DNA from: a virus
Strand: one strand, 5' to 3'
IMG/VR virus record: IMGVR_UViG_3300049217_000136
Span: 1 to 30,230 of that record
DNA: 30,230 nt
Part shown: piece after piece, positions 651 through 11,292 of the stretch
How positions within the stretch are numbered: position 1 is the stretch's first letter
Layout of the letters: each line of letters begins with the position of its first letter
Translations under genes and position numbers: made by a program
Notes under the pieces: generated by a model
Databases searched by the model: none
Told to the model about the DNA's origin: nothing
Seen by the model: only the letters and a program-made list of their open reading frames with translations

Positions 651-1184
651 TCAGAAGCAGGCTTCAGTGGGAAGGCTGCGCTCTTTGGAGATTGCGCGGT
701 CGCGCGTAGCGGCAAGAAAGGCCCCGAACGAAGAGCGCGAGATGCGCCAGGCCGAGGATCCGCGCGGCACGATCTGGTAAGCCTCGAACTTCCCTTCCTG
801 GATCAGTCGCACCAGCGGCCGGCGGTCTTCATAGCCGAGCGCGATCAGTGCCTCCTCGGAATAGATGGTGTCGCTGAGCGGGAACGGCAGCAGGTCTTCG
901 TCGCGATGGCGAAAGATGGGATTCGAGAGCACGGGCCTGCGGTCGGTCACGCCGTACTTCGTGCGCAGGTAATCGCAAAAGTGGACGATCGAGGAATAGA
1001 GTACGCGCTTGCGCGCGTTGTGCCGGTAGCTCACCAGGAAGAGCAGCTCGCGGCCGCCGCGGTCTTTCATGCCGGCCAGCCGATACACGGTGCCAATGCT
1101 CACGCCCAGGATGTGGCCGCAGCGGCGCACGTCCACGTATTCGCGCTCGGCGAAGGGCAAGATCATCTGGCCTTCCATCTTCAT
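651..1184 (-). CDS. Protein with two helix-turn-helix-like segments
   Basis: A 177-residue protein. The start at 1184 is chosen because it overlaps the GemA-like stop as ATGA and has GGAGG eight bases upstream. Residues about 15-40 (VDVRRCGHILGVSIGTVYRLAG) form an excisionase/MerR-like helix-turn-helix. Residues about 106-150 repeat the theme (YSEEALIALGYEDRRPLVRLIQEGKFEAY, then a basic stretch ending SRSSFGAFL), which looks like a second winged helix of the DNA-binding excisionase type. Two tandem modules suggest a DNA-bending or regulatory protein acting late in the early operon, where Mu places its late-gene activators. It is not recognisably Mor or C of Mu, so that equivalence is only positional. 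Confidence 0.8.
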   Translation of the reverse strand: MKMEGQMILPFAEREYVDVRRCGHILGVSIGTVYRLAGMKDRGGRELLFLVSYRHNARKRVLYSSIVHFCDYLRTKYGVTDRRPVLSNPIFRHRDEDLLPFPLSDTIYSEEALIALGYEDRRPLVRLIQEGKFEAYQIVPRGSSAWRISRSSFGAFLAATRDRAISKERSLPTEACF

Positions 1185-1696
1185 TTCTTTTTCCTCCAGA
1201 TGCCGGCTCCGCGCGCCATCCGCTTCAGGGCCCACCAGGCCTTGTTGGCGTCGGCCGTAGTGCGGATCGCCTTGTCGGAGCGCTTGGCAAACGGGCTGCG
1301 CGTCGATGCCAGAAAGTTCCTGAAGCGCTCCTGGGTCCAGCCGAGTTGCTCCAGCATGCGCTCGATGCGGGCCAGGTCGTCGGCAGTGGCGATCTGCGGG
1401 CTGGCGGCAAACTCCAGGCCGTCCTTGCGGCCGTCCAGGCCGGCGCGCCGCGCCTGCTCGCGGTTGGGCCGCTTCTTGAGCGGCGCCTTCACTCCTAGCG
1501 CCGATTGGATGGAATCGATCAGGAAGCCGGCGTCGTTGCCGGTGAGCGCTTTGAAGCTCTCCACCGGCTTCCCCAACCGCTCTGTCGCCCAGCGGATACG
1601 CTCCTCGCGCGATGTACCCACGCCGATCTCGTGCGCGGCGAGCTGGCTATAGAGCGTTTGCAGCCTTCCGAGTTGTGGCTTCGTGATGAGCATCAT
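1181..1696 (-). CDS. gemA: GemA-like regulatory protein (Mu gp16 family, DUF1018)
   Basis: A 171-residue basic protein. The N-terminus (ITKPQLGRLQTLYSQLAAH), the central GNDAGFLIDSIQ segment and the C-terminal block with WTQERFRNFLAST followed by ANKAWWALKRMARG match my recollection of the GemA/DUF1018 family of transposable phages. In Mu, GemA is a semi-early protein reported to influence host gene expression and DNA supercoiling; here the role is by homology only. It sits in the distal half of the early operon, coupled on both sides by ATGA overlaps. The start has tandem ATG codons at 1696 and 1693. Confidence 0.75.
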   Translation of the reverse strand: MMLITKPQLGRLQTLYSQLAAHEIGVGTSREERIRWATERLGKPVESFKALTGNDAGFLIDSIQSALGVKAPLKKRPNREQARRAGLDGRKDGLEFAASPQIATADDLARIERMLEQLGWTQERFRNFLASTRSPFAKRSDKAIRTTADANKAWWALKRMARGAGIWRKKK

Positions 1697-2710: not shown

Positions 2711-2788
2711 TCAAGAAAGTTCCCAGCGGCGCAGGCTCCTGTCGTTGAGGTATTGGGTGGTGCGTCGTGAGTCTCCGACCGCTGTCAT
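2711..2788 (-). CDS. Possible 25-residue microprotein or leader peptide
   Basis: An ATG at 2788 overlaps the receiver-like gene's stop as ATGA, the same coupling used throughout this operon. It opens a 25-codon frame beginning MTAVGDSRRTTQ and ending at a TGA at 2711-2713, 23 bases before the next gene's start. It could be a true microprotein or a short coupling ORF that carries ribosomes to ATG 2687, which has no clear ribosome binding site. The evidence is only the overlap geometry; no homology is claimed. The competing reading is that the next gene starts at TTG 2795. Confidence 0.3.
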   Translation of the reverse strand: MTAVGDSRRTTQYLNDRSLRRWELS

Positions 2789-3210
2789 GAGACAAATTCT
2801 TTGATATCCATGAACAACGAGCGCGGCAGCTCGCGCATCACCGGCTTCTTGGGGCCCCGCTTGCGTATGGTGATGACCTTGATGCGCTCAAGCAACTCGG
2901 CGCTGCAAAAAGGACGCCGCAGAATGGAGTCGGCAAAAAAGTCGGCCCCGGCACCCCGCAGCGTGGGCGCCAACACCATGGAAGGCACACTGCTGTCGAT
3001 TGCCCTGGCCTCGTCAAGCAGTCCGGCGATGCCGGCCAGCGGCCATTCGCAGAGCAGCAGATCGTAAATGCGATCCCGGAACATCTCAACGCCCAGAGCC
3101 GCGCTGCCCGCGACGGTGACGGCGAAGCCGTTTGTGGTGAGCATGAACTTGAGCACGGAAGTTCGGTCTTCGCGCTCGCCCACCAGCAGGATTTGTTTCT
3201 TCGGTCTCAT
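2785..3210 (-). CDS. Degenerate response-regulator receiver-like protein
   Basis: A 141-residue stand-alone protein with a CheY-like pattern: beta1 KKQILLVGE (residues 4-12), helix, beta2 FAVTVAGSAALGVEMF, beta3 YDLLLCEWPLAG (49-60), beta4 VPSMVLAPT (75-83), beta5 DSILRRPF (94-101), final helix SAELLERIKVIT. Every hallmark position is changed: the acidic pair is GE (11-12), the phospho-acceptor Asp is Glu55, the conserved Thr/Ser is Ala81, and the conserved Lys is Arg99. It should therefore be phosphorylation-independent, perhaps locked in one state. A C-terminal tail of about 25 basic residues follows. Its start directly abuts the preceding stop (TGA then ATG). A role in mimicking or binding host signalling proteins is inference. 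Confidence 0.75.
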   Translation of the reverse strand: MRPKKQILLVGEREDRTSVLKFMLTTNGFAVTVAGSAALGVEMFRDRIYDLLLCEWPLAGIAGLLDEARAIDSSVPSMVLAPTLRGAGADFFADSILRRPFCSAELLERIKVITIRKRGPKKPVMRELPRSLFMDIKEFVS

Positions 3211-3465
3211 TCACGCCTCGACGAACTGCACCAGGTTGGAAAAGAACGGATCAGGATGACGGCGTAGAAGGCCGCGCGCCTCGGCATATCTGATTTCGCG
3301 GTCAAGCACTGTGGTCAGCGGCTGGCGTCGGTTGCCGTTCTTGACTGTCACTCCGACATTCATCCAGGGCTCAAAGCCGTGCATCTCGTGCTGCGCGCCG
3401 GCCCTGATAAGTTCCACGGCCGATTCGTCGGCGAGCGCAAAGGCGAGCTCAGTCAGGTTGTCCAT
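3211..3465 (-). CDS. Small hypothetical early protein
   Basis: An 84-residue protein starting MDNLTELAFALADESAVEL. The start at 3465 is fixed by a one-base TGATG overlap with the upstream gene. It has an amphipathic helical N-terminus, a middle GFEPWMNVGVTVKNG and a C-terminus rich in Arg/His/Phe. No family or motif recognised. The next gene downstream is the receiver-like protein, which begins immediately after this stop, so the two are probably made together. Confidence 0.75.
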   Translation of the reverse strand: MDNLTELAFALADESAVELIRAGAQHEMHGFEPWMNVGVTVKNGNRRQPLTTVLDREIRYAEARGLLRRHPDPFFSNLVQFVEA

Positions 3466-3803
3466 CAGTCGCCGCCTTTCAAGTCTTTGAATCGCTCGAT
3501 CATCGCTTCTTCGCGGGAGATATCGAGCCCGTGCAGCTTGCCGACATGGACGATAGCTTGCGCGCGGGCCAGCAAATACGGCCGCGCCGAATCCTGGCCG
3601 CCGAGCCATACGCTCAACGCGCGGGTGAGGTCTTCCCGCAGCGGCATGGGCACCTCACACCAATGCGTGAAACACATCAGGTGCCGCACCTTGATCTCGC
3701 TCGCGCAGCCAGGAATCTTGCAGATGCGAGCCGGCTCTCTGTCTCCGGTTCGCGCCGCACCCTGGATCGCGGCTTCGACTTGCTGCCTTGGACGCACATA
3801 CAT
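3465..3803 (-). CDS. Small protein with four-cysteine zinc motif
   Basis: A 112-residue protein. ATG 3803 is set by a TGATG overlap with the upstream gene. Residues 28-49 read CKIPGC, then about ten residues, then CFTHWC, giving C28-x4-C33 and C44-x4-C49 with His47. This is the CxxxGC...LCxxH type of small zinc finger seen in many phage early proteins, sometimes in HNH-related folds, but no HNH catalytic residues are evident. The remainder is helical (REDLTRALSVWLGG, LLARAQAIVHVGKLHG). Likely a DNA- or protein-binding accessory protein; function unknown. Confidence 0.75.
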   Translation of the reverse strand: MYVRPRQQVEAAIQGAARTGDREPARICKIPGCASEIKVRHLMCFTHWCEVPMPLREDLTRALSVWLGGQDSARPYLLARAQAIVHVGKLHGLDISREEAMIERFKDLKGGD

Positions 3804-4134: not shown

Positions 4135-4370
4135 GCCGCGCCTCGATTCCCGGTACCGGCGACCAGTTCCAGCACCGGCTCAAAGTCGCGCGACAGAGCA
4201 CTGGGCAGCACGGCCTCCCGCTCTGCCGGGTCCAGGCTCATGATCCAGATGTGCCCTCGATAGGCGCGCTCCCGCGCTTCGATGCCCACCACATAGAGTC
4301 CGCCGGTGCGGCGCTCGCGCACGCGCGAGCCGGGCGGAAACTTCACGCTCATGCTGTCGATGGTCTTCAT
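4131..4370 (-). CDS. Small hypothetical early protein
   Basis: A 79-residue protein starting MKTIDSMSVKFPPGSRVRER. The first half looks like a small beta-barrel (VKFPPGSRVRERRTGGLYVVGIEA, then GHIWIMSLD), reminiscent of KOW/SH3-like folds, and the second half is probably flexible. No named family. Coupled by ATGA overlaps to the winged-helix gene upstream and the membrane microprotein downstream. Confidence 0.7.
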   Translation of the reverse strand: MKTIDSMSVKFPPGSRVRERRTGGLYVVGIEARERAYRGHIWIMSLDPAEREAVLPSALSRDFEPVLELVAGTGNRGAA

Positions 4371-4837
4371 TCTGTTGGCTCCTTCATGGCCTGGCGGAGA
4401 TCCAGCCCGTGCTGGCCCATCAGGCGGTTCAGGTCGTATTCGTTGCGCAGGATGGCCGCGCGGGCGAACAGCTTCACGCCCTCGCGGATGTAGTGCTCTG
4501 AGCCATCCACGCGCTCCTGCGCGGTGGTGGCAAAGTAGTAGCCGCCGGTCTCGCCGTCGCGGCTGGCCACGATGGGCAACCGGAAGCTCATCACCAGCTC
4601 ACGCACGTCGGCCTTGATGGCCCGCGCATCGCTGCCCACCTTCTGCTGCAGCTCGTCGATGGTCATGGCCACGTTGCGCCCCTGGCGGCCGCGCAGCTGC
4701 TCCAGGATTCTGCGCTGGCGCTGGCTCAGCGGCCACGGTCCCTTGTCGATCAGCGCCAGGTGAATCAGGCGCTGGTTTTCGGCCACGGCCTCGCGGCGCA
4801 TATCGCCATCGGTGCGCAGCTCGAAGAGAGTGTTCAT
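4367..4837 (-). CDS. Winged-helix DNA-binding protein
   Basis: A 156-residue protein. The N-terminal half has a helical block (WPLSQRQRRILEQLRGRQG), then a classical phage winged helix: TIDELQQKVGSDARAIKADVREL as helix-turn-helix and LPIVASRDGETGGYYFATTAQE as the wing. This pattern is common in phage replication or regulatory proteins. The C-terminal third is helical and ends RLMGQHGLDLRQAM. It probably regulates early transcription or assists replication; which of the two is not visible. ATGA overlap with both neighbours. Confidence 0.75.
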   Translation of the reverse strand: MNTLFELRTDGDMRREAVAENQRLIHLALIDKGPWPLSQRQRRILEQLRGRQGRNVAMTIDELQQKVGSDARAIKADVRELVMSFRLPIVASRDGETGGYYFATTAQERVDGSEHYIREGVKLFARAAILRNEYDLNRLMGQHGLDLRQAMKEPTE

Positions 4838-7655: not shown

Positions 7656-8017
7656 CAGCGGCCTCCGATCGCGTGCGCAAGCGCGCGCTCGATCGCGCCG
7701 CCCTGGATGGCGCCGACGATCTCGATGGCGATGTAGAGCGCCATGCAGACAACCGCCGTCTTCAGCCAGAAGTCGCAGATGTTCGTCGTCGTGCGCAACA
7801 GCTTGCCGAACCTCGCGAGCTGCTCATCTGAAGGGCTGAAGTTCATCAGCGCCGCCCAGCAGCGGCCAAGCTTCACCGTGACATGCACGCGGTTGCCGTG
7901 GACCGAAGCCGTCAACTGGCCTTCGCGGTGCGTCTGCCGGTAAGCGATCTCGGGGTTGGCGGCCGGCTCGTGGTCCACCAGGCGGCGCAGGGATTCGGGC
8001 AATGCATTCGGGGTCAT
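7655..8017 (-). CDS. Hypothetical protein with C-terminal membrane segment
   Basis: A 120-residue protein starting MTPNALPESLRRLVDHEPAA, coupled to the B ATPase by an ATGA overlap. The soluble part has beta strands (GQLTASVHGNRVHVTVKLG). A hydrophobic stretch around residues 85-110 (FWLKTAVVCMALYIAIEIVG) probably spans the membrane. It follows B directly, so it may be made in fixed ratio to the transposition proteins. Function unknown. Confidence 0.75.
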   Translation of the reverse strand: MTPNALPESLRRLVDHEPAANPEIAYRQTHREGQLTASVHGNRVHVTVKLGRCWAALMNFSPSDEQLARFGKLLRTTTNICDFWLKTAVVCMALYIAIEIVGAIQGGAIERALAHAIGGR

Positions 8018-8997
8018 TCGGCCTCCTCGGGCTCGGTTGCGGGCGCGGCATCCGCGCAGATATGCCGCGCGTCTTCAATGGCGAAGAACAGGTTGCGCGC
8101 GGAAATGTAAGAGAAGCTCTTGTCGTTGCGCTGGGCGGGGACCGTGGCTTCCTTGATGCTCTCGGCAACGAACTCCTTGTCCTGCTGGCCCAGCTCGGCC
8201 GTGAGAATGCGCTCGGCCTCAACCGCGCTCAGCCCTTGCAGCAGGTGGGTGCGGCGCAAGCGGCTGCGCCACTGCTCCATTTGCCAGTGCATGAGCCTGC
8301 GCGACAGATCGTGGCTGCCGCCCAGGGCCACGCCGAAGAAAGGCGGCGTGTCCAGCAACTGGCGAAGGACTTCCAGGCCCTGGTGCTCCAGGTGCTGGGC
8401 CTCGTCCACAATCAACAGCGTCCGCTGGCCGCCAAGGAAGAACCTGAGCTTGCGCAGCAGCTGGTCAATGTTCCCCCGGTTGGGAATGCCGGCTTCCGTG
8501 CAGGCCTCCACCAGGAACGAGCCGGGCGAGTGCTCAACGCGGGCATAGATATACACCGCGCGGCCAAGCTTGCTGGCGTTGATCTCCTGAGCCACGCGGC
8601 GGAACGTATAAGTCTTCTGTGTGCCTGGAGGGCCGTCCACGAGAAACGCCGCGCCTTGTTTCAATGCAGACCACATCGAGCGGCGAATTGCGGAGTACTC
8701 GCCGGTGGGATAGTGGCGCAGATCGGCCGGCCGCGGGTGGGTGATCTCGTAACGGTCGATAACCTGCTTCAGCGCCGCGCGCACCGCCAAGGTGTTCGAG
8801 TCGGCCGGCCGGTTGGATCCATACTGCCCGCTCAGGAACACCCGCAGCGACGACGGGTTGAGCCCGGCCAGGTCTGCCAGCTCGGCGATGGTGAGCCCCG
8901 CATGCAGCACAAAGCTCCTCGCCCGCCGGATCATGTCGGCGTCGCCGGGCAGCCCCAGGGATTCGAGATGAGGCCTACGCTTGGCCAGGATGGACAT
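8014..8997 (-). CDS. B: AAA+ ATPase, Mu B-type transposition target protein
   Basis: A 327-residue protein. The N-terminus has a lambda-repressor-type helix-turn-helix (residues about 35-58, LTIAELADLAGLNPSSLRVF), as in Mu B. The AAA+ core follows: Walker A GPPGTQKT (122-129) and Walker B LLIVDEAQ (194-201), then LGGSHDLSRR as a sensor region. In Mu, B binds ATP and DNA, selects the target and stimulates the A transposase, and gives target immunity; these roles are inferred by family. It starts 23 bases inside the A gene, with GGAG upstream. Length agrees with the Mu B family (about 310). Confidence 0.93.
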   Translation of the reverse strand: MSILAKRRPHLESLGLPGDADMIRRARSFVLHAGLTIAELADLAGLNPSSLRVFLSGQYGSNRPADSNTLAVRAALKQVIDRYEITHPRPADLRHYPTGEYSAIRRSMWSALKQGAAFLVDGPPGTQKTYTFRRVAQEINASKLGRAVYIYARVEHSPGSFLVEACTEAGIPNRGNIDQLLRKLRFFLGGQRTLLIVDEAQHLEHQGLEVLRQLLDTPPFFGVALGGSHDLSRRLMHWQMEQWRSRLRRTHLLQGLSAVEAERILTAELGQQDKEFVAESIKEATVPAQRNDKSFSYISARNLFFAIEDARHICADAAPATEPEEAE

Positions 8998-10846
8998 TTG
9001 CTTTTCTCCGGAGCAGTCGTGCGGCCATGCGTTCCGCTGCCTGGCCGGGCAGGAGTGTTGGTTGGGGCGAGTTCTCGCTGGGCGCGAGGCGGGGCTTCCG
9101 CTGCGTCAAAATGTCGGTCACGTTGCCCGATGGCGGCGCAAGGCGCGCGGCCATGGCTGCGAGGGGCGTCTGCGCGCCATTGGAGCGCGCGGCGCGGCTG
9201 ATGGCCTCAATGGTTTCGCGCGTGCCCTTCTCCAGCCGCCGGCGCATGGCCATGGAGTCGCCGATCTGTTTCTGCACCTTGGGGTCGCCGGGGGCGAAGC
9301 GGGCCAGGTCTTCCGGTCGCAGCCAGGCCAGAAAGCAACCGTCCAGGTCAAGCGCCGCGGCCGCGTCGCGATCCCCCGGATCGTAGGCCACCAGAATTTC
9401 GCGCTCATTCTGGCAGTGCAGCGTTGTGTAGCCGGCTTCGTCTACCGGCACAAAGCGCCGTTTGTTCAGGGCCACGGCGCACTCGCGCACAGTACGCTTC
9501 TCGCGCTCGGCCATCAGCAGCGCCAGCGCGGCCGGCTCGGGCGCGGGCTTCTGCGCGGGATTGAGGTGCGCCTCGAAGACCTGGGCCGGCGAGCAGCCTT
9601 CCATGCCTTCGCCGCCGTGGGGCGTGACGTTGTATTCCTCAATCCACGCCAGGCACGCGGCCACAAAGTGGCTGGCGAGCGGATGCTTGCTGAGCGCCGC
9701 GCGCCCGCTCTTGAGCAGCTTGCGGTGCTCCATCATGCTGGCCGTGGTGGCGTCTGGCCGCGTGAAGGGGTTGCCGCTGGTATAGGTGGGCCACACCTTG
9801 TCGAACCGCTCATGCAGCGTGCGGAAGAACCGCTCGACGTGCTTGGACTGCGGGTGGTGCGGGATGCAATGCGTGACGGCGACGCCCATGCGGGCCAGAA
9901 AGCCGGTGGCCGCAACCTTGTCAAGCTCGGCGCGCCACCAGCCCTGGGGCGCGAGCGGACTCTCGGCCAGATAGCCCGGCTGCGCGCCGCGCGCCACCTT
10001 GCGGTAGTCCTTGCCGTTGTCCACGTAGAGATGCTCGGGCGGCCCGCAGCGCAGCACCGCGCGGCGCATGGTGGCGGCGATCGCGCGGGAGCTGCCCTCC
10101 CAGGCCCAGTTCGCGCCGGTCAGGTACCGGCTGCGATAGTCCAGCATGGCCGAGAGGCGAATGCGGATCGGCGCGCCCCACTCCGCGTCGTCGAAGCAGT
10201 CGTTGGCGCACTCCACGTCGTGAATCATGTGGTCGCCGACCCAGATCTGATTCGCAAACTCGGTGTAGCCGCGGCGCAGATAAGGCGCCATGCGGTCGCG
10301 ATAGGCCTTGCGGCCGTTGCGTGCGTAGACCGTGAGCGAGGGTGGCATGGACTTGAGCCACGCGCGCACCGTGTCGTAGTGGGGCAGGTCCCCGGCCGGT
10401 ATCTGCAACGCCTCGCGCTCACGGACGATGGCTTCGTGCGCCACGCGGCAGCTCTGCCGCTGGTCTAGGTAGAGATAGGCCGCGAGCCATGCGGCGCGGG
10501 GATAAGTCTGGAAGAAGCGGCTTGCACCCTTGTCGCTGCGCTGCTTATCGGCCAGCGCGGGCAGGCCGCCGTCTTTGAAGGCGCGAAGCCAGCGATAGAT
10601 CGTGGTGGACGTGGTTCCGTTGGCCTCAGCCGTGTGCTCCACCAGGCGGCTCATGCTGGTAACCGGTGTGCCGTCTTTGAGCCGGAGCGAGACGTATCGA
10701 GCTGGATCGCCGTCGTAACTGAGGATCGGCTTGATGATCGCGTGGCGACCCTCGGCCTGGGCGCGGGCCTCGGTATCGGGAAGCGCGACGCGCTCCGGAC
10801 GCGCCGCTGGCGAGGCGAAGGGGATGAGGGCGAGGGCGGCGCTCAT
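8975..10846 (-). CDS. A: DDE transposase, Mu A-type
   Basis: A 623-residue protein. ATG 10846 is chosen because AGGAGG lies five bases upstream and it overlaps the preceding stop as ATGA. An N-terminal helix-turn-helix region (LVEHTAEANGTTSTTIYRWL) precedes an RNase-H-like integrase core (rve). The DDE triad is visible as D205 (NQIWVGDHMIHD), D276 (LYVDNGKDYR) and E338 (HHPQSKHVERFFRTLHE). A C-terminal region with a Mu-transposase C-type beta barrel and a basic tail follows. It catalyses end cleavage and strand transfer in integration and replicative transposition. The ends it would act on are not in the window. A and B overlap by 23 bases. Confidence 0.95.
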   Translation of the reverse strand: MSAALALIPFASPAARPERVALPDTEARAQAEGRHAIIKPILSYDGDPARYVSLRLKDGTPVTSMSRLVEHTAEANGTTSTTIYRWLRAFKDGGLPALADKQRSDKGASRFFQTYPRAAWLAAYLYLDQRQSCRVAHEAIVREREALQIPAGDLPHYDTVRAWLKSMPPSLTVYARNGRKAYRDRMAPYLRRGYTEFANQIWVGDHMIHDVECANDCFDDAEWGAPIRIRLSAMLDYRSRYLTGANWAWEGSSRAIAATMRRAVLRCGPPEHLYVDNGKDYRKVARGAQPGYLAESPLAPQGWWRAELDKVAATGFLARMGVAVTHCIPHHPQSKHVERFFRTLHERFDKVWPTYTSGNPFTRPDATTASMMEHRKLLKSGRAALSKHPLASHFVAACLAWIEEYNVTPHGGEGMEGCSPAQVFEAHLNPAQKPAPEPAALALLMAEREKRTVRECAVALNKRRFVPVDEAGYTTLHCQNEREILVAYDPGDRDAAAALDLDGCFLAWLRPEDLARFAPGDPKVQKQIGDSMAMRRRLEKGTRETIEAISRAARSNGAQTPLAAMAARLAPPSGNVTDILTQRKPRLAPSENSPQPTLLPGQAAERMAARLLRRKANVHPGQA

Positions 10847-11292
10847 CGCCGCCTCCTGTTCTGATGCCAAATCGTCTCAATCTCGGCGCGCGCTGCCTCA
10901 TCAAGGAAAGGCGAGAGATAGAGCCGTACTGCGCCTGGGCACGGGCGCCGTTGGGGGTCATAGCCGCGATCGAGCGCCGGGATCCAATGGCGGCAGTTTT
11001 GGAGCACCCTGAGCGCTACGCGCAAGCGGAGATCGCCCGCGCCCGGCTCCATCGCTTCATAGATTGCTTCCCATTTAGCGATCTTCAGCTCGGCAAGGTA
11101 GGTCTTGCCGGGTTGACGATTCTTCCAAACGATCCTGCGCGCACCAATGGGAATGATCGGAGCATCGGGCTTATCGCAGACGGGCTGAGAGCGCGGGAGA
11201 CCGGTCAGATCGCTCGATCCGCACAGCACCACCGCGATCATGGCCGTCAGTAGGTTGCCGAGCTGTTCGAGGCGGGTGCTTTCCTGGCTCAT
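10843..11292 (-). CDS. Hypothetical early protein upstream of transposase
   Basis: A 149-residue protein starting MSQESTRLEQLGNLLTAMIA. The first 25 residues are hydrophobic and could be a membrane segment or a buried helix. The rest is Arg-rich with scattered Trp and Cys (RRIVWKNRQPGKTYL, LQNCRHWIPALDRGY). No family recognised. It is coupled by ATGA to the transposase gene, so it may modulate A translation. Confidence 0.75.
   Translation of the reverse strand: MSQESTRLEQLGNLLTAMIAVVLCGSSDLTGLPRSQPVCDKPDAPIIPIGARRIVWKNRQPGKTYLAELKIAKWEAIYEAMEPGAGDLRLRVALRVLQNCRHWIPALDRGYDPQRRPCPGAVRLYLSPFLDEAARAEIETIWHQNRRRR

What the first reader, a model, noticed from the sequence alone, without database searches (positions are those of the whole stretch)
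2785..3210. Phage-encoded receiver domain with every hallmark residue altered
The predicted CheY-like domain has GE instead of the acidic pair, Glu55 for the phospho-acceptor Asp, Ala81 for Thr/Ser and Arg99 for Lys. A Glu at the phospho site is a well-known way to mimic an active receiver. The gene sits inside a coupled phage early operon, so it may bind a host sensor kinase or output partner, or regulate phage genes, without phosphorylation. The fold and key positions are read from sequence; the role is inference.
Basis: partly seen in the sequence, partly recalled or inferred. Interest (0 to 1): 0.75.

Follow-up and report, generated by a model that had tools for sequence, protein, structure and literature searches.

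The report
Phage pseudo-receiver with conserved basic tail
This phage gene makes a bacterial-signalling-type "receiver" protein that very probably can no longer be switched by phosphate; it belongs to a large unnamed phage family in which the switch site drifts freely while two short positively charged end pieces stay almost unchanged, so the phage seems to have kept the scaffold for another job.

Summary
The minus-strand gene 2785-3210 (141 aa), in the early operon of a Mu-like transposable phage, is predicted with confidence to be a CheY-type receiver (pLDDT 88; Z 19 to solved receivers). All five signature positions are altered: G11, E12, E55, A81, R99.

The reading "Glu55 mimics an active receiver" is not supported. 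I recovered 56 distinct phage family members. The phospho-site is one of their most variable positions (D 17, E 6, other 33) and flips between D and E inside one close clade. Here Thr is Ala, Lys is Arg, and the alpha4 segment is about four residues short across the family.

Simple decay is unlikely for the family. Close pairs of degenerate members show dN/dS 0.14-0.44, and 19 of 27 comparable Mu-like phages keep the gene in the same slot. What is kept is MRP[K/R]K at the start and RKRGP after alpha5 (Gly-Pro 56/56). Only one relative (L083) has the full catalytic set.

Best reading: a phage pseudo-receiver family, independent of phosphorylation, whose working part is probably a basic patch formed by its two ends, acting in early gene regulation. 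The molecular partner is unproven.

The parts
2785..3210 (-). Pseudo-receiver gene, 141 aa
3196..3210 (-). Conserved basic N-terminal motif MRPKK (residues 1-5)
3175..3180 (-). G11 E12 in place of the acidic pair
3046..3048 (-). E55 in place of the phospho-acceptor Asp
2968..2970 (-). A81 in place of Thr/Ser
2929..2967 (-). Shortened beta4-beta5 segment (residues 82-94), no alpha4 helix in the model
2914..2916 (-). R99 in place of Lys
2848..2865 (-). Conserved basic tail motif RKRGPK (residues 116-121) directly after alpha5
3211..3468 (-). Upstream gene whose stop codon abuts the receiver ATG; similar gene near the receiver in 12 loci
2711..2788 (-). 25-codon ORF whose ATG overlaps the receiver stop (ATGA); relatives often have a longer gene here
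4367..4837 (-). Conserved operon gene (similar genes in 25 loci, weak HTH match)
1181..1696 (-). Conserved downstream operon gene (23 loci; resembles Mu gp16/GemA by eye only, no library hit)
651..1235 (-). Conserved downstream gene with HTH_17 match (21 loci)
8975..10870 (-). MuA-type transposase
8014..8997 (-). MuB-type DNA transposition protein

Best explanation
Supported by computation: the gene encodes a stand-alone receiver-fold protein of a family found here only in phages. The family has lost the phosphorylation chemistry repeatedly, has a shortened alpha4 region, shows purifying selection, and keeps two basic end motifs, MRP[K/R]K and RKRGP[R/K]. Inferred: in a receiver, beta1 begins and alpha5 ends on the face opposite the active site, so the two motifs should lie together as one positive patch. 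The protein then acts constitutively, with its amount (set by the early operon) replacing phosphorylation, and uses this patch to bind nucleic acid or an acidic partner, most likely in the early transcription switch or in take-over of host regulation. In some relatives its gene overlaps that of a separate HTH DNA-binding protein, as if receiver and output domain of a response regulator were two genes. Pseudo-receiver identity: about 0.95. The basic-patch mechanism is a commitment, not a demonstration; the confidence given is for the whole statement.
For: Fold. Family of 56 and residue counts. The five catalytic positions have 49 to 117 of 136 positions more conserved than they are, while G119 and P120 are invariant; same picture in the 18 members found through MuA synteny rather than through the motif. 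Conservation is at protein level, since the Gly and Pro codons vary synonymously. Mean charge: first six residues +3.2, motif nonamer +4.7, core -3.6. dN/dS 0.14-0.44 in close pairs. Gene kept in 19 of 27 Mu-like phages with MuA at least 39% identical and enough downstream sequence. T-to-K segment 18 residues in 35 of 56 against 22 in ordinary receivers, also 18 in L083. Genes overlapping the receiver stop hit an HTH family in about 9 of 33 cases against about 7 of 70 after other conserved genes (Fisher p about 0.04; post hoc, counts approximate).
Against: No binding data. The AT-hook definition is not met and no nucleic-acid-binding family is hit. Members outside the MuA set were retrieved with patterns taken from the two end motifs, so conservation there is inflated; one search is the fairer estimate. 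The basic tail could be a docking peptide for a protein instead. In the window no HTH gene overlaps the receiver. dN/dS was measured in relatives, not on the window copy, which has no close relative.
Confidence: 0.45

Rival explanations
1. Decoy for host two-component signalling: the receiver fold binds a host sensor kinase or pairs with a host response regulator and blocks it, with no need of phosphate; the basic tail is accessory.
For: The fold is kept in all members examined. An early phage protein, PIT4, is known to bind several host histidine kinases (PMC10714779). Binding competition and heterodimers are proposed for cellular pseudo-receivers (PMC12632262).
Against: The alpha4 segment, part of the usual output and dimer face, is shortened. 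The most conserved residues are the two ends, not known kinase-binding surfaces. No partner is known.
Confidence: 0.25
2. Permanently active receiver: Glu55 mimics the phosphorylated state.
For: Glu at this site activates some response regulators, and a PhoB D10A/D53E double mutant is constitutively active (PMC4395418; PDB 2jb9 title).
Against: E in only 6 of 56 members, alternating with D in a close clade. Thr and Lys partners and the aromatic coupling residue are missing. The same review says Glu alone is often not enough.
Confidence: 0.05
3. Still phosphorylated, but inefficiently: members with Asp keep residual switching, and only those like the window have lost it.
For: 17 of 56 keep Asp; L083 has the full set and L076 lacks only Thr/Ser. 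Substitutions at DD, T or K do not always abolish phosphorylation (PMC12632262).
Against: 39 of 56 lack the Asp altogether, and 13 have none of the five residues, in the same operon slot.
Confidence: 0.12
4. A decaying cargo gene without function.
For: Catalytic residues lost in many ways; the L003 copy has a frameshift.
Against: dN/dS 0.14-0.44, invariant Gly-Pro, conserved slot, open frames in nearly all members.
Confidence: 0.05

Closest known systems
Canonical receiver domain (PF00072; PhoB, KdpE, CheY)
   Same: (beta-alpha)5 fold; best Z 19.2, rmsd 1.9 over 117 residues
   Different: All five catalytic positions altered, alpha4 segment short, no output domain, conserved basic ends
Bacterial pseudo-receivers / aspartate-less receivers (ChxR, RitR, HP1043, FrzS)
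   Same: Receiver fold without the phosphorylation residues; activity, if any, must be independent of phosphate
   Different: The known examples are cellular proteins, mostly with further domains (my knowledge); this is a stand-alone phage family with an RKRGP tail and MRPKK start. The two reviews consulted do not mention phages
phrog_731 (unnamed PHROG)
   Same: Best phage-family match of the window protein, 6e-7 over residues 5-121; 15 of 23 members match it
   Different: Profile of 227 positions with no name or function; the match may reflect only the shared receiver fold
PIT4 of Pseudomonas phage LSL4
   Same: Early phage protein acting on host two-component systems
   Different: Comparison of strategy only; homology was not tested

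Membership tests
Canonical receiver (PF00072) | Receiver fold | tested here: met
Canonical receiver (PF00072) | Catalytic set DD, D, T/S, K | tested here: not met
   G11 E12 E55 A81 R99
Canonical receiver (PF00072) | Score above Pfam's curated cut-off | tested here: not met
   20 against 30.2 bits
Pseudo-receiver / aspartate-less receiver | Recognised as a receiver by sequence, and lacking residues for phosphotransfer | tested here: met
   definition from PMC12632262
Pseudo-receiver / aspartate-less receiver | Functional without phosphorylation | not testable with these tools
   Purifying selection in relatives suggests function; biochemistry needed
Constitutive Glu phospho-mimic | Glu at the phospho-site conserved in the lineage | tested here: not met
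   6 of 56, at least 4 origins
Constitutive Glu phospho-mimic | Thr/Ser and Lys partners and aromatic coupling residue retained | tested here: not met
   A81 and R99; I96 at K-3 (sequence)
AT-hook protein | GRP core flanked by basic residues | tested here: not met
   Core is RGP; no AT_hook among the Pfam hits of 23 members at E 0.1
OmpR/NtrC/NarL-type response regulator | Output domain in the same chain | tested here: not met
   141 aa, short low-confidence tail, no second domain hit
phrog_731 | Full-length match to the profile | tested here: inconclusive
   Matches profile positions 2-124 of 227
Mu-like transposable phage (context) | MuA-type transposase and MuB-type ATPase with terminase, portal and head genes | tested here: met

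The most novel reading that the evidence does not exclude
These phages use a split, phosphate-independent response regulator: a stand-alone pseudo-receiver with an RKRGP docking or binding tail works with interchangeable, separately encoded HTH proteins (Fis/PucR-like, Xre-like, MerR/HTH_17-like, zinc-HTH) to run the early switch.
Probability: 0.18. Interest if true: 0.75.

Novelty: new variant of a known kind. Interest (0 to 1): 0.5.

Why it matters
How pseudo-receivers work outside plants is called largely unknown (PMC12632262). Here is a compact, single-domain family, apparently under selection, that runs from a receiver with the full catalytic set to fully degenerate ones in the same kind of operon. 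It lets one ask which parts of a receiver matter once phosphate is dropped. It also points to an unnamed early-gene product of transposable phages that may interfere with host signalling or transcription.

Tried and rejected
Single-sequence searches: one viral relative, only ordinary response regulators in genome contigs, weak matches in the phage collection, none for L002's protein. The first profile scan added nothing. Host: no relative of the transposase (E 1e-60) or of the receiver family (E 1e-20) in 398 Pseudomonadota genomes; there was no positive control and other phyla could not be reached, so the host stays unknown. Relatives cannot be drawn for a virus record. Plasmid searches gave only ordinary receivers. 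RKRGP tail on other proteins: one unrelated case, in L028. Tail-only remnants in Mu-like phages that lack the receiver: none convincing. Literature: no paper with pseudo-receiver, phage-encoded and response regulator together; searches gave nothing that describes this family. Overlap of a stop with the next start is common in these operons (201 control cases), so the overlap itself is not special. AT-hook and phospho-mimic readings were rejected as described in the membership test.

Full report
WHAT IS THERE. The window is a 30,230-base virus record of a Mu-like transposable phage: MuA-type transposase, MuB-type protein, terminase, portal, head, tail and endolysin genes were recognised. The finding's gene is on the minus strand, 3210 to 2785. 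Its ATG directly follows the stop of the upstream gene. It lies in the early operon, about 5.8 kb downstream of the end of the transposase gene.

FOLD. Single-sequence evidence is weak (Response_reg E 8e-4, under the cut-off), but family and fold are clear. AlphaFold2 gives pLDDT 86 with 23 and 88 with 52 family sequences. Foldseek and VIA-align match solved receivers (best Z 19.2, rmsd 1.9 over 117 residues). The model runs beta1-alpha1-beta2-alpha2-beta3-alpha3-beta4-(no alpha4)-beta5-alpha5, followed by a low-confidence tail.

CATALYTIC RESIDUES. Against intact receivers in the alignment the window has G11 and E12 for the acidic pair, E55 for the phospho-Asp, A81 for Thr/Ser and R99 for Lys.

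THE FAMILY. Searching by transposase and then by family profile and with profile HMMs gave 56 distinct phage members (window included), plus three ordinary receivers used as yardsticks. Phospho-site: D 17, E 6, others 33. The full set DD/D/S/K occurs in one member, L083; 13 members have none of the five. By entropy, 117 of 136 positions are more conserved than the phospho-site. G119 and P120 are invariant, R118 is 54/56, K117 is 52/56 (4 Arg), and most members begin MRPKK or MRPRK. Because one search used these motifs as search patterns, I repeated the count on the 18 members that lie behind a related transposase: same picture (Gly and Pro 18/18; phospho-site D 9, E 2, others 7). The Gly and Pro codons vary synonymously, so the protein is conserved rather than the DNA.

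DECAY IS UNLIKELY. Close pairs of degenerate members have dN/dS 0.14 to 0.44. Nineteen of 27 Mu-like phages with MuA at least 39% identical and more than about 6.5 kb downstream carry the gene, with the frame opening 4.3-6.1 kb after the MuA match (the 19 of 27 is my tally of that table). Neighbouring genes are conserved too. L083, with the full set, sits in the same kind of operon, so intact and degenerate copies appear to be one gene in different phages. The window copy has no close relative, so its own dN/dS could not be measured.

NOT A PHOSPHO-MIMIC. On the maximum-likelihood tree the D/E/other state of residue 55 needs 13 changes, and starred branches force at least 4 for E. D and E alternate among L013, L019, L035, L091 and L101, which are 65-87% identical. 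In Asp-less receivers in general, Glu is the commonest substitute (26%; PMC4395418), so its presence is unremarkable. The Thr-to-Lys stretch is 18 residues in 35 of 56 members against 22 in ordinary receivers, also 18 in L083, which fits the missing alpha4.

HOW IT PROBABLY WORKS. The conserved parts are two basic ends (mean charge +3.2 and +4.7, against -3.6 for the core). By receiver topology they should lie together at the face opposite the old active site (general knowledge of the fold, not measured here). I therefore favour a constitutive scaffold that binds nucleic acid or an acidic partner by this patch during early regulation (confidence 0.45). A decoy for host kinases or regulators is the main rival (0.25). 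A suggestive extra: the gene that overlaps the receiver's stop codon matches an HTH family in about 9 of 33 relatives, against about 7 of 70 for other conserved genes (Fisher p about 0.04). In five relatives (L002, L018, L027, L033, L054) it belongs to one Fis/PucR-like HTH family. This comparison was made after seeing the data and the counts are approximate. The window has only a 25-codon ORF there.

NOVELTY. Pseudo-receivers are a known kind (PMC12632262, PMC4395418). A phage family with a conserved RKRGP tail, conserved start and shortened alpha4 segment was not found in the libraries or papers searched; the nearest is the unnamed phrog_731. I call it a new variant of a known kind.

LIMITS. 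The host is unknown. The relatives are IMG/VR records, nearly all from metagenomes; the record number of L072 suggests an isolate genome (inference from the identifier). There is no biochemistry. The number of members is limited by pattern searches, and the members outside the MuA set were found partly through the motifs whose conservation is reported.

Noticed in passing
L003 11360-11395: The relative in L003 starts ATGAGACCCAAGAAGAGAATCCTG as usual but then meets TGA; the rest of the gene is open in another frame. Sequencing error, broken gene or recoding not distinguished.
   Followed up: partly
window 3205-3207 (codon 2 of the gene) and relatives: Arg codon 2 is AGA or AGG in 43 of the 51 members with Arg there, although AGR is only 21% of their other Arg codons; probably an initiation-region effect.
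   Followed up: partly
L013, L019, L035, L003, L011, just downstream of the receiver: An ASCH-like gene overlaps the receiver stop codon in these relatives.
   Followed up: no
L057, L076, L078, L088: Family members lie on contigs of 88-143 kb; L057's record had no MuA match, so the gene is not confined to Mu-like phages.
   Followed up: partly
window 2711-2788: A 25-codon ORF starts inside the receiver stop (ATGA) where many relatives have a longer overlapping gene; perhaps a remnant.
   Followed up: no
L028 14458-14733: An unrelated 92-aa small protein ends in TKKRGPR, the only other case of the tail motif in the loci held.
   Followed up: no
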